Shown here piece by piece: positions 17,428 through 55,400 of a DNA stretch of 64,000 nt. How positions within the stretch are numbered: position 1 is the stretch's first letter; the number at the start of each line of letters is the position of its first letter. The stretch is from Sipunculus nudus (lineage: Eukaryota; Annelida; Sipuncula; Golfingiida; Sipunculidae). Under the pieces are notes generated by a model that saw only the letters and a list, made by a program, of their open reading frames with translations, was not told the DNA's origin and did no database searches. Made by a program: the position numbers and the translations under genes. The stretch spans positions 62,665,176 to 62,729,175 of the forward strand of contig CM049316.1 of assembly GCA_026874595.1 (NCBI GenBank), written 5' to 3'.

Positions 17428-18348
17428 TTTTTAGCTCAGCTGACTGTAAGTCATCTGAGCAATAGCGATCACTCTTTTTTCCGTCGTCCGTCCGTCTGTC
17501 TGTCTAGCAGTCCGTTAACCAGGCACAAATCGTAACCGCTGGACCCAGAATCTTGTAACTTTACATAATGAGAGATCCAAGAAAAATCTCCTTGGAAACC
17601 AGAAATTAGGTCTCTGTAGCCAATATCCTTCGAGCTATGGGGCCCCAAAGTACCCCCCCCCCCCCCCCAGAATAGTGAAAATTTCATACAAAAACTTCAA
17701 TATCTCATTAACTGCATCAATGATGGTCATGATTTTTGGCATACATATTGACCATGAGATGTTTTTTAATCAGTTTCTGCAGACTGGTGGCGCCACCGGT
17801 ATTTTTCGATTTTTTACGAATTGTTTTCTCTATTTGTGAACATTTGTTAACAGGGCAACAATCATAAAGACTGGACCCAGAATCTTCATTCTTGACACAG
17901 TGAGAGACCTATGAAAAGTCTCCATCGTAACTTGAAATAAGGTCTCTGTTACCCATTTTGAGCTGTGGGGCTCCCAATCCCCCCCCCCCCCGGTATTAAT
18001 GGAAAATTTGATAAAAAAAACTGCAACATCTCAATAACTACTGATTGTCATGATTTTTGGCATACATATATTTATCAAGAGGTGTTCCATCAGTTCCTGC
18101 AGACTGGTGGCGCCACCTGTATTTTTTTTCAAATTTTTACAAAAATACAGCCACCTGTATTTTTTTTTTAAAGTTTAAGCATTTTTTTCTCTTTTTTTCA
18201 GATATATAAATACAGACACAACTCACCTGTTGGTTAATCTGTTTGATGCTTCAGTTGAATGGGTATATACTACCATTCACATGATAAAATTTCCTTTTGC
18301 GAATCTCTTCCCAGTCAGCTGAGCGTCATGACCCGTGGGTCAATTGTT
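17428..18348 (+). mobile_element. Helentron-like non-autonomous element, family A copy 1
   Basis: 5' end TTTTTAGCTCAGCTGAC; its first 11 bases GCTCAGCTGAC (17434-17444) recur as the exact inverse GTCAGCTGAGC at 18314-18324, just before a terminal palindrome TGACCCGTGGGTCA (18329-18342) and AATTGTTT. The 5' end itself forms a hairpin with CATCTGAGC. It is followed by a GTCCGTCC-rich segment, then two related blocks, each with a CCAGAATCTT word, a poly-C tract, and GGTGGCGCCACC (17786-17797, 18106-18117). Asymmetric inverted repeats plus a 3' hairpin and insertion at T-rich sites are the established Helitron2/Helentron architecture. No Rep/helicase frame is present. Confidence 0.7.
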
Positions 18349-18659
18349 TCATGACATGCTTTGCCAAATGTACCTTACTAATATTTTATATAGGCCCTAA
18401 TCGATATTGGAAGGAAAGTTTAATATTTCTGGTTGAACATATTTGTAAGTACTTATACACTTCACAACAAAGTGTGATAAAGATATATCTAATGGAAACT
18501 GCTTGTATCATCACAAATTACTGATTCTCCCATCGATTTATGCTGCTTCTTCTTGTCGGTTTCAACTAAAGTACTGCTACGTGCGATCATATATATTTAT
18601 ATATGAAGACATTTTTTCTACATGTATCTGTGAGAATTACATATGATTAGATAAAATAA

Positions 18660-52400: not shown

Positions 52401-55400
52401 TTCTGACCATTTCCTGTGACAGAGCCTATTAAGCCCTAGTGAAACCCTCAGATTTTAAAATATTATTGTATCGCCAGACATAGTCTGGAGATACTATGGT
52501 TTAGGCACGGTTGCGCCGCCGCCGCCGCAGAGATTTCTTTTGGACACAATAACTCAAAAAATATTTCAAGGATCTTTTTCAAACTTGACACATTTATAGA
52601 TATAGGTGAGAGGACGAAGCCTATATAAAATGGGGTCATGACCTCAACTAGGAGAGTGACCTTGACCTTGAATAGATCCATTTTTGGGGAAAATCACACA
52701 AATTCTTAAATATCTCAAGAAATCTTTCATGGATTTATCCAAAAATCAGATTGGACAAAGATCTTGGATAGTGATGTCATATACCGGAAACTGGTGGTGC
52801 CACCTAGTATCCTTTTCTTGTTTTTATGCCGTTTAATACCCCCATCATTGCCACTTGACAGTCCTTTCAGCATCACAAGTCAAAAACTGATTGACAGATT
52901 TCTTTAATATTATGCATGTACATAGGTATGGGTTATGGGATGATGTATATTAAAATTGGGGTCATGACCTTTCCTTTGAGAGTGGCTTTGACCTTGAATA
53001 TTACCATATATGGTGAAAATCACATAAAATCATGAATATCTTAAAAAGGGATGCATGGATTGGTCCAAAAATCAAGTTGACGGAAGATCTTGGATAGTTT
53101 TGTCTTTTGCAGAAGATAGGTGGCGCCACCTGTTGTCCTTTTCTTGTTTTTTCCGCCTTTGAATACCCCATCATTGCCACTTGACAGTATATACTGTGAG
53201 CATTATAAGTCAAACAGTAATGGACAGATTTCTTTCATGTTATGCATGTATATAGATATGGTTTATGGAATGAGGTATATTTAATTTTAAATTTAATTTT
53301 AAAATTTAATTTAATTTAAATTATTTTTTTTTAAATTTAATTTTTTTTTCAAATGTTGGATATTTTGGAATGCAGTTTATTGATTTGGGGTCATGACCGT
53401 GACTATGAGAGTGACCTTGACCTTGAATATTCCCATATTTGGTGAAAAACATAAAATCATGAATATCTTAAAAAGGGCCACTTGACAGCACTGTGAGCAT
53501 TATAAGTCAAAAACTAATGGACAGATTTCTTTTATATTATGCATATACATAGATTTGGATTATGGGATGAGATATATTTAAATTTGGGTCCTGACCTTGC
53601 ATATGAGAGTGGACTTGACTTTAAATATTGCCATATATGGTAAAAATCACCAACAATCATGAAAATTTCCAGTGAACCTGGGGGACTGCTTCAGCTAGTG
53701 GTCTGCACATGGTGTTGCACCATGTTTTGCCCAAACATCAGCAGTTCTGGGCCATGGTCAGATTCTATAAATAGATATGATGGTCAGTGATAAATGAATT
53801 AGTGCACTGGGTGTACCACAGAGTCACAACTGGATCATTTTCTTTGAGAGTGGTCTTGACCTTTGGACGAAGACTATTTAAAATGGCTCATGAATGTTGC
53901 CTATATGGGACTTGACAGTATTGTCAGCATTATAAAATAAAAATTAAAAAGTTGTTGCCATGTGCTGGAAACTAATTGGCAGATATCTTTCATATTATGC
54001 AAATAGAAAATACCACAAAACCTCATTTGTCTGGCGATACTATGGCACCAGCGGTGCCAAGAAATGTCTAGTTATCACTGGAATTCCTTTACCATGTGAT
54101 CAGTTCAGCCAGGCATCATTGTATCGCCAGACATAGTCTGGAGATACTATGGTTTAGGCACGGTCGCGCCGCCGCCGCAGAGGTTTCTTTTGGACACAAT
54201 AACTCAAAAAATATTTCACGGATCTTTACCAAACTTGGTATATGTATAGATATGGGTGAGAGGACGAGGCCTATTTAAAATGAGGTCATGACCTCAACTA
54301 GGAGAGTGACCTTGACCTTGAATAGGTTCAATTTTGGGGAAAATCAAACAAATTCTTAAATATCTCAAAAAAACGTGCATGGATTGATCCCAAAATCAAG
54401 TTGATCGAAGATCATGGATAGGGTTGTCATGTTCCAGAAACTGGTGGCGCCACCTATTATTCTTTACTTGTTTTCATGCCGTTTAATATCCCCAAAATTG
54501 CTACTTGACAGTACTGTGAGCATTATAAGTCAAAAACTAATGGACAGATTTCTTTCATATTATGCAAATACATAGATATGGGTTATGGGATGATGTTTAT
54601 TTAAATTGGGGTCATGACCTTTCCTTTGAGAGTGGCCTTGACCTTGAATATTGCCATATATGGTGAAAATCACACAAAATCATTAATTTCTAAATAAGGG
54701 ATGCATGCATTGGTCCAAAAATCAACTTGACCAAAGATCTTGGATAGTAATGTCATGTACCGGAAACAGGTGGCGCCACCTGTTATTCTTTTACTTGTTT
54801 TCGTGCCGTTTATACCCCATCATTGCCACTTAACAGTACATTTATAACCTGTGAGCATTATAAGTCAAAAACTAATGGACAGATTTCTTTCATATTATGC
54901 ATATACATAGACATGGGTTATGGGATAATGTATATATAAATTGGGGTCATGACCTTCCCTATTAGAGTGGCCTTGACCTTGAATATTGCCATATATGGTG
55001 AAAATCACACAAAATCATTAATATCTCAATAAGGGATGCATGCATTGGTCCAAAAATCAACATGTTCGAAGATCTTGGAAAGTATTGTCATGTACCGGAA
55101 ACAGGTGGCGCCACCTGTTATTCTTTTACTTGTTTTGTGCCGTTTAATACCCCATCATTGCAATTTATCAGTACTGTGAGCATTATAAGTCAAAAACTAA
55201 TGGACAGATTTCTTGCATATACATAGACATGGGTTAGGGAATGGTATATTGAAATTTGGATCATGACCTTTTCTATGAGAATGACCTTTTCTATGAGTGT
55301 GGTCTGATATTAATTGTTGCTGAAGATGGGGGCCTATTCTTAAAGGGGGGGGGGGATTAATTGTCTGGCGATACTATGGCACCTGCGGTGCCAAGAAATA

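What the first reader, a model, noticed from the sequence alone, without database searches (positions are those of the whole stretch)
17786..55115. Identical 12-bp palindrome GGTGGCGCCACC shared by two Helentron-like families
The perfect palindrome GGTGGCGCCACC occurs exactly at 17786, 18106, 40882, 53119, 54443, 54769 and 55104, always inside body units of families A or B, usually flanked by an AAACTGG or AAACAGG-like word and followed by a T-rich 'CTTGTTTT' stretch. A near miss (GGTGGTGCCACC) is at 52791. A and B have unrelated ends, and in this AT-rich DNA chance recurrence of a GC-rich 12-mer is very unlikely, so the site is either inherited from a common core or kept under selection (protein binding, cruciform, replication or capture signal).
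Basis: partly seen in the sequence, partly recalled or inferred. Interest (0 to 1): 0.75.

Follow-up and report, generated by a model that had tools for sequence, protein, structure and literature searches.

The report
Conserved palindrome in mollusc-like transposon repeats
A 12-letter palindrome present about 112,000 times in one mollusc-like genome is among the best-kept parts of a repeat module shared by several otherwise unrelated jumping-DNA families, and it contains the central part of the DNA word read by the genome-folding protein CTCF, so it may be a handle by which these elements spread.

Summary
The seven exact GGTGGCGCCACC sites are real. They are a sample of 111,729 exact copies in the 1.43-Gb host genome (reversed control 14), in tandem body units of HINE-like transposons (non-autonomous Helentrons). 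Families A-D show no BLAST flank similarity, and A, B and C have different ends; yet all four share YA-GGTGGCGCCACC-W followed by a GAGAT box 74-76 bp on. Palindrome-N72-78-TGAGAT has 31,912 strand-matches genome-wide, control 0.

With the palindrome masked while copies were collected, it out-conserves flanks in C and D, in A in the full set, not clearly in B. In C the nearest copies differ in it as much as in flanks, distant ones 4-6 times less; D and B do not show this contrast cleanly. It is kept as sequence, not as a stem; no family switch at 161 assignable sites.

Best reading: a cis protein-binding site needed for element propagation. Candidate reader: CTCF. The genome encodes CTCF with human-identical ZF3-ZF5 contact residues, and the full CTCF consensus is 104-fold enriched. 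But its 5' CC is absent (1 of 123).

The parts
17428..18345 (+). Family A HINE: 5' subterminal repeat AGCTCAGCTGAC at 17433, its inverted copy (one mismatch) at 18314-18325, then a short hairpin GACCCGTGGGTC
   Evidence: outer limits and hairpin by eye
17786..17797 (.). palindrome GGTGGCGCCACC in A unit 1 (neither neighbour gives AGGTGGCGCC)
17702..17706 (-). second box (GAGAT on the minus strand), 79 bp from the palindrome
18106..18117 (.). palindrome in A unit 2
18028..18032 (-). second box of A unit 2, 73 bp from the palindrome
40561..40920 (+). Family B left end (TATCCCCAGAC, one mismatch, at 40565) with one B unit; right end of this copy not identified
40882..40893 (.). palindrome in this B copy
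40801..40805 (-). second box of this B copy, 76 bp from the palindrome
   Evidence: read
52465..54062 (+). Family B HINE copy: TATCGCCAGAC at 52469, GTCTGGCGATA at 54029, 3' hairpin GGCACCAGCGGTGCC at 54044
   Evidence: outer limits by eye
52793..52804 (.). CpG-decayed palindrome GGTGGTGCCACC
52712..52716 (-). second box of that unit, 76 bp from the decayed palindrome
   Evidence: read
53119..53130 (.). palindrome, second B unit of this copy (second box decayed)
54118..55396 (+). Family B HINE copy: TATCGCCAGAC at 54122, GTCTGGCGATA at 55363, 3' hairpin GGCACCTGCGGTGCC at 55378; about 335-bp units
   Evidence: outer limits by eye
54443..54454 (.). palindrome, unit 1
54362..54366 (-). second box, unit 1, 76 bp from the palindrome
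   Evidence: read
54769..54780 (.). palindrome, unit 2, inside the 20-bp palindrome AACAGGTGGCGCCACCTGTT (second box decayed)
55104..55115 (.). palindrome, unit 3
55023..55027 (-). second box, unit 3, 76 bp from the palindrome
   Evidence: read

Best explanation
GGTGGCGCCACC is the most constrained box, or next to it, of an old repeat module (YA-GGTGGCGCCACC-W, about 75 bp, TGAGATAT) that forms the tandem body units of several families of HINE-like elements with unrelated ends. Shown: the shared two-box module, its abundance, greater conservation of the palindrome than of flanks in C and D (and in A in the full set), and conservation as sequence rather than as a stem. Shown in family C only: the excess conservation exists between old lineages but not between the closest copies. 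Inferred: the palindrome is a sequence-specific protein-binding site that an element needs in order to propagate. Copies that lose it stop giving descendants, while copies already inserted decay freely. The most likely host reader is CTCF or a CTCF-like zinc-finger protein through fingers 3 to 6, since AGGTGGCGCC is present on at least one strand; this last step is a candidate, not shown.
For: 111,729 exact copies, reversed control 14. 173 sites with at most 1 mismatch in 317 kb (sites within 70-82 bp of a stretch end or with N dropped) fall into flank clusters of 103, 38, 15, 14, 2 and 1 with no mutual BLAST similarity at E 1e-4. Box 2 (GAGAT) lies 76, 76, 74 and 76 bp after the palindrome in the A, B, C and D consensus, in 142 of 249 held sites at +70..+79 against 0-6 in the other 10-bp bins but one (25), and palindrome-N72-78-TGAGAT has 31,912 strand-matches genome-wide, control 0. 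With the palindrome masked during copy collection, non-CpG palindrome columns against flanks: C (n=141) 0.930 vs 0.656; D (18) 0.944 vs 0.772; A (47) 0.960 vs 0.820; 0 of 91 flank windows reach the whole-palindrome mean in each. Family C motif/flank divergence ratio falls from 1.41 to 0.16 with flank divergence, family A from 0.67 to 0.03. In random loci, nearest pairs of all families give 22/237 against 217/2181 (p 0.82) and the deepest C bin a ratio of 0.24. GC-biased conversion does not explain it: flank G/C columns are not better kept than A/T columns in 4 of 4 families. Binder: CTCF gene with identical ZF3, ZF4 and ZF5 contact residues; full CTCF consensus 4,264 vs 41; YA next to the palindrome on at least one strand in 119 of 123 exact sites.
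Against: No binding or transposition data exist here. Family B does not show excess conservation (5 of 91 flank windows as good; 26 of 91 in random loci), and A in random loci is weak (19 of 91, n=11). In the wider alignments the single best 10-mer is CCAGTCTGCA in A and CCACCAATAC in D (overlapping the palindrome's right edge) and CCAAGATCTT in B (outside it). The contrast between close and distant pairs is clean only in C: in D the closest bins already have low ratios (0.09, 0.13, then 0.98, 0.36, 0.27, 0.25), in B 0.00, 0.53, 0.40, 0.19, 0.37, and A nearest pairs show a deficit (5/176 vs 114/1576, p 0.026). In random loci C runs 1.26, 0.48, 0.85, 0.64, 0.39, 0.24 and B rises 0.52, 0.53, 0.72. 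Pairs within a bin are not independent, and some loci were chosen because they hold exact copies. A-C and A-D similarity beyond the boxes is weak (18 and 13 of 500 shuffles as good). For CTCF: the CC upstream is missing (1 of 123; 0 full sites), and both arms are about equally kept in family C (43 changes left, 33 right, non-CpG, 137 copies), more than one CTCF site needs.
Confidence: 0.55

Rival explanations
1. Mere shared ancestry: the palindrome is a leftover of a common monomer without a special role.
For: The module is shared with near-fixed spacing; in B, and in A in random loci, flank windows are as conserved; the best 10-mers of A, B and D are beside or only partly in the palindrome.
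Against: In C and D no flank 12-bp window reaches the palindrome (0 of 91 each), and at the deepest flank divergence it changes 4 to 6 times more slowly than flanks in C and 3 to 4 times in D.
Confidence: 0.2
2. Host-level function of each copy (insulator or enhancer sites scattered by the element and kept by selection on the host).
For: CTCF core in the word, a CTCF gene; A nearest pairs show a deficit (p 0.026) and the closest bins of D and B have low ratios.
Against: In nearest pairs of C the palindrome diverges as fast as flanks: 35/523 vs 278/4637; all families in random loci 22/237 vs 217/2181. CpG decay products are common: 19 of 44 intact-or-CpG-decayed sites in the window plus random loci.
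Confidence: 0.12
3. Cruciform or hairpin signal for rolling-circle replication or strand capture.
For: Perfect palindrome, up to 20 bp at 54769 and 55104; Helentrons have a 3' stem loop (PMC4067079, passages); 3 compensated changes at the central CpG pair.
Against: 103 one-sided non-CpG changes against 2 compensated and 1 uncompensated double in 218 copies; the next base pair is often not complementary (A on both sides); no loop.
Confidence: 0.05
4. Recombination or module-exchange site by which unrelated HINE ends acquired the same body.
For: Unrelated ends carry the same module; a 12-bp palindrome is a junction site in another bivalve satellite, phBglII400 (PMC5139131, section 12; its sequence is not printed there).
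Against: 0 of 161 sites with both flanks assigned switch family at the palindrome, 12 sites unassigned; the shared module reaches to box 2, about 90 bp away.
Confidence: 0.07

Closest known systems
Cg_HINE non-autonomous Helentrons of Crassostrea gigas (PMC7492417; first part of the text, section 6 and passages read)
   Same: Subterminal inverted repeats, 3' hairpin, central satellite-like units; different ends with related units; dissimilar unit clusters sharing two relatively conserved segments
   Different: The conserved segments are only in a figure not held, so identity with palindrome and box 2 is untested; units here are about 130/149 and 335 bp
BIV160 / Cg170 / pearl (CvA) bivalve satellite superfamily (PMC5139131; passages and section 12 read)
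   Same: Divergent monomers that share two well-conserved motifs and occur in Helitron-type elements
   Different: No motif sequence was available to compare; conservation against divergence is not in the passages read
CTCF binding site of bilaterians (motif recalled; human protein checked against PDB 7w1m)
   Same: AGGTGGCGCC fits the core AGRKGGCRSY; the host has CTCF with identical ZF3-ZF5 contact residues
   Different: Lacks the 5' CC; is a palindrome carrying the core on one or both strands; sits in tandem transposon units
Transposon-spread binding sites: rodent B2 SINE CTCF sites, Drosophila miranda Helitron with MSL sites (both recalled, not read)
   Same: A transposon multiplies a short protein-binding word
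   Different: Here no binding is shown, and the constraint seen best (family C) is on element lineages, not on inserted copies

Membership tests
HINE (non-autonomous Helentron) | subterminal inverted repeats at both ends | tested here: met
   A: AGCTCAGCTGAC 17433 and, with one mismatch, inverted at 18314; B: TATCGCCAGAC 52469/54029 and 54122/55363; C: L044 409-423 and 2077-2091 (one copy). Not looked at for D
HINE (non-autonomous Helentron) | short palindrome after the 3' subterminal repeat | tested here: met
   B: GGCACC(A/T)GCGGTGCC at 54044 and 55378; A: GACCCGTGGGTC by eye; C: GTAGTCG-ACAA-GCGACTAC by eye in L044
HINE (non-autonomous Helentron) | central tandem repeats | tested here: met
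   TRF: 326-bp unit 52622-53281, 335-bp unit 54272-55220
HINE (non-autonomous Helentron) | insertion at TT without target duplication, empty sites | not tested
   no empty-site comparison made
HINE (non-autonomous Helentron) | shares ends with an autonomous Rep/Helicase element | tested here: inconclusive
   143 Helitron_like_N matches in the genome (150 of 195 candidates scored); 6 kb around 1 of them shows no A or B ends and no module; 142 not examined
BIV160/Cg170/pearl repeat superfamily | the two published conserved motifs | not testable with these tools
   sequences not in the passages and sections seen
CTCF binding site | core AGRKGGCRS(Y) | tested here: met
   A beside the palindrome on at least one strand in 119 of 123 exact sites; AGGTGGCGC: 36 of 36 hits in 264 kb lie in palindromes
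CTCF binding site | 5' CC(A) part of the consensus | tested here: not met
   CC in 1 of 123, full CCASYA in 0 of 123
CTCF binding site | host CTCF with conserved core-reading fingers and motif abundant in the genome | tested here: met
   ZF3, ZF4, ZF5 contact residues identical to human, ZF6 and ZF7 partly changed; CCASYAGRKGGCRSY 4,264 vs 41 control
CTCF binding site | occupancy in chromatin | not testable with these tools
   no ChIP or ATAC data
structured (cruciform/hairpin) element | compensated changes in the two arms | tested here: not met
   2 compensated vs 103 one-sided non-CpG changes; central CpG pair 3 compensated vs 82 one-sided

The most novel reading that the evidence does not exclude
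Several lineages of HINE have kept for a long time a palindromic, orientation-free CTCF half-motif (fingers 3-6, on one or both strands) as a cis-acting propagation signal: CTCF or a paralogue bound to tandem units keeps the element accessible or recruits it to replicating chromatin. As a by-product about 112,000 weak CTCF-type sites were scattered through one mollusc-like genome, some 26 times more than full CTCF consensus sites.
Probability: 0.22. Interest if true: 0.85.

Novelty: new variant of a known kind. Interest (0 to 1): 0.6.

Why it matters
Bivalve HINE units are reported to share short conserved motifs whose role is open. Here one such box is identified by sequence, counted, tied to a second box at near-fixed distance, and, in the most diverged family, shown to be constrained between element lineages but not between the closest copies, which points to a job in transposition.

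Tried and rejected
Chance: rejected. Cruciform: rejected as the reason for conservation. Junction/capture site: 0 family switches at 161 assignable sites. GC-biased conversion: flank G/C columns are not better kept. Relatives outside this genome: 37 IMG/VR contigs match palindrome plus TGAGAT (GC 0.39-0.70) and look like chance; one of them (L062, GC 0.39) has A before the palindrome and TGAGATAT after it, but no other likeness was seen and it was not followed. An autonomous partner: 6 kb around one long Rep frame shows no module or ends; the other 142 matches were not examined. Literature: the palindrome string occurs in 1 paper, on a bacterial chitinase (listing only). Searches for CTCF with Helitron, mollusc or bivalve (two searches listed 15 of 23 and 8 of 15 papers) showed no title or abstract start that describes this; one search listed one review, not opened. 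Any statement that it is unpublished rests on these searches of an open-licence library only. Passages of PMC6344568, PMC7883824 and PMC11136912 were looked at and gave nothing decisive; the first prints a guide for a human CTCF site containing AGGTGGCGC.

Not done: genome counts of YAGGTGGCGCCACCTR and CCASYAGGTGGCGCCACC (tool unanswered), structure prediction, insertion-site test, identification of the species (mollusc is inferred from resemblance of the repeats to bivalve HINEs).
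Full report
Observation. The window lies in a 1.4265-Gb, 153-contig genome (G000:C11:62665176-62729175). There the 12-mer has 111,729 exact places against 14 for the reversed pattern. YAGGTGGCGCCACCW has 71,143 forward and 71,162 reverse matches against 1 and 1 for the control; a site fitting on both strands is counted twice. Random sampling agrees: 18 exact copies in 200 kb, and copies with at most one mismatch in 9 of 20 stretches (two stretches are partly N). The species was not identified; mollusc is inferred from resemblance to bivalve HINE repeats.

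Material. I held the window, 20 random 10-kb stretches, 20 stretches of contig C1 chosen because one search listed exact sites there (ascertained), four of the eight loci (four overlapping ones dropped), and, for and later, 7 more stretches chosen from the list.

Where it sits. Family A (17428-18345) and two of the three family B copies have the structure of HINEs: subterminal inverted repeats, a 3' hairpin, and body units in tandem. The right end of the B copy at 40561 was not found. Family C has a third pair of ends (L044, one copy). By reading the module runs opposite to the element's 5'-3' direction in A, B and C. In 317 kb, 173 sites with at most one mismatch (sites near a stretch end or N dropped) form flank clusters of 103 (C), 38 (A), 15 (D), 14 (B), 2 and 1.

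A shared two-box module. When the site is turned so that A precedes it if either side allows, that base is A in 170 of 173. In the consensus of A, B, C and D the word GAGAT begins 76, 76, 74 and 76 bp after the palindrome. Local alignment of the right flanks beats dinucleotide shuffles for A-B and C-D (0 of 500 as good), B-C (1) and B-D (2), less so for A-D (13) and A-C (18). Of 249 sites with at most two mismatches, 142 have GAGAT at +70..+79, on either strand. The other 10-bp bins hold 0 to 6, but for +20..+29 with 25, which I read as a subfamily word (bins counted on sites at least 130 bp from a stretch end). Genome-wide, palindrome-N72-78-TGAGAT occurs 16,022 + 15,890 times, control 0 + 0, that is up to 28.6% of exact palindromes even with both words exact. 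So the families are related in this module though their ends and most of the unit differ.

Is the palindrome special? Copies were collected with profiles in which the palindrome was masked, so that decayed sites are included. C (141 copies): non-CpG palindrome columns 0.930, flanks 0.656. D (18): 0.944 and 0.772. A (47): 0.960 and 0.820. No flank 12-bp window of 91 reaches the mean of the whole palindrome in any of these. B (16): 0.975 and 0.884, 5 of 91. In random loci alone: C (40 copies) 0 of 91, D (11) 0 of 91, A (11) 19 of 91, B (8) 26 of 91. In wider alignments the best 10-mer lies inside the palindrome in C, overlaps its right edge in A and D, and lies outside it in B (second best there: AGGTGGCGCC). 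Family C has further, weaker conserved blocks at TGCAAAATTT (+51) and GAGATATGAG (+86).

At what level does the constraint act? For pairs of copies I compared divergence in ten non-CpG palindrome columns plus the A at -1 with divergence in flanks. In C the ratio is 1.41 for flank divergence under 5% and then 0.49, 0.41, 0.32, 0.30, 0.40, 0.27 and 0.16 with rising divergence; disjoint nearest pairs give 35/523 against 278/4637 (p 0.5). In A it runs 0.67, 0.59, 0.83, 0.48, 0.22, 0.16, 0.03, with nearest pairs 5/176 against 114/1576 (p 0.026). In D it runs 0.09, 0.13, 0.98, 0.36, 0.27, 0.25 and in B 0.00, 0.53, 0.40, 0.19, 0.37, with few nearest pairs (6 and 5) and no significant difference. In random loci only: C 1.26, 0.48, 0.85, 0.64, 0.39, 0.24; A 0.63, 0.46, 0.11, 0.29; D 0.81, 0.71, 0.39, 0.34; B 0.52, 0.53, 0.72; nearest pairs of all families 22/237 against 217/2181 (p 0.82). 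So in C, the most diverged and best sampled family, copies decay in the palindrome about as fast as elsewhere after insertion while surviving lineages keep the word; A, D and the random loci fit this partly, B does not test it. That is what selection for a cis role in propagation predicts; the A, D and B results leave some room for constraint on copies. On writing these results out in full I lowered the main reading from 0.6 to 0.55 and raised host use of copies from 0.08 to 0.12.

Sequence or structure? In 218 copies, non-CpG arm pairs show 103 one-sided changes, 2 compensated and 1 uncompensated double change; the central CpG pair shows 82 one-sided and 3 compensated; exact palindromes number 99, and 168 have at most one change. 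The CpG columns are the weakest in C (0.81 and 0.71) and weak in A and B, not in D, in keeping with deamination of a methylated CpG (inference). Arms are about equally kept in C (43 left and 33 right changes), though over all families position T3 changed once and its partner A10 19 times, 7 of them in what looks like a family A subfamily with an altered right arm. Both flanks could be assigned at 161 of 173 sites and none switches family at the palindrome.

Who reads it? AGGTGGCGCC is the core of the CTCF consensus (recalled). Tests: (1) the genome has a CTCF gene, C11:67037578-67038510, 56% identical to human over residues 2-309 of the eleven-finger region, E 4e-109, next best match 41%; its best PDB match is CTCF 7w1m. 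Helix positions -1, 2, 3 and 6 are identical to human in ZF3, ZF4 and ZF5; ZF6 and ZF7 keep one and two of the four. (2) The full consensus CCASYAGRKGGCRSY occurs 4,264 times against 41 for the reversed pattern; how many of these lie in repeats was not tested. In 264 kb the shorter YAGRKGGCRSY occurs 16 times outside palindromes (7 of them in two tandem repeats of L020) against 3.1 expected (sd 1.5, largest of 60 simulations 8), and 0 of 200 column-permuted patterns reach 16. So the vertebrate-type motif is probably in use here (inference). (3) 119 of 123 exact palindromes have YA on at least one strand, but only 1 has the upstream CC and none the full site. The palindrome therefore offers the part read by fingers 3 to about 6 (assignment recalled) and not the finger-7 part. 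Equal upkeep of both arms in family C would be unneeded for one CTCF molecule and leaves room for a dimeric reader.

Known work. Oyster HINE units from dissimilar clusters share two relatively conserved segments (PMC7492417, section 6), and BIV160, Cg170 and CvA repeats are related through two conserved motifs (PMC5139131, passages). Their letters are not in the text seen, so identity is plausible but untested. HINE structure was compared with PMC4067079 (passages). CTCF exists in molluscs; a squid shows a CCCTC-like motif at domain borders and no motif direction was found (PMC9023564, PMC10658182, passages); in an annelid CTCF is the commonest motif in open chromatin (PMC7854359, passages).

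Verdict. The families are not independent, and the palindrome is under extra constraint, best seen at the level of element lineages in family C. A protein-binding role is the best reading; CTCF is a testable candidate, not a result.

Noticed in passing
38650-42560 and family B units: Arrays rich in AGGTCAAAGGTCA (exact at 38794, 38929, 39066, 41495, 41784, 42073, 42403, 42552) and TCAAGGTCA, words like nuclear-receptor DR1 and SF-1/ERR sites (recalled); family B units also carry TCAAGGTCA in close pairs on the minus strand, as at 52657/52663, 53412/53418 and 54307/54313.
   Followed up: no
27331, 38327, 58824: Family A-type 5' ends AGCTCAGCTGAC with no exact palindrome close by: the same ends may carry other bodies.
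   Followed up: no
whole genome: Full CTCF consensus CCASYAGRKGGCRSY is 104-fold enriched (4,264 vs 41); the 100 places listed show many sequence variants.
   Followed up: partly
L020: Tandem repeats each carrying a CTCF-like word (TACAGGTGGCAGTTTTAC four times, GCTAGGGGGCGCTGCA three times).
   Followed up: no
C7:69271462-69272253 and C17:22921946-22922776: Two further CTCF-like zinc-finger frames (41% and 35% identity), possible paralogues or other zinc-finger genes.
   Followed up: no
whole genome: 143 Helitron_like_N (Rep) matches, seven of them in open frames over 2,200 aa: autonomous Helitron/Helentron elements may be intact.
   Followed up: partly
L093: The long Rep frame is preceded by a repetitive basic coding-like stretch (EKKQERLGSQRIRQNK-like units).
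   Followed up: no
4997-5803, 623-922, 25176-25373: Ordinary tandem arrays: 26 bp x 31, 22/42 bp, 14 bp x 14.
   Followed up: no
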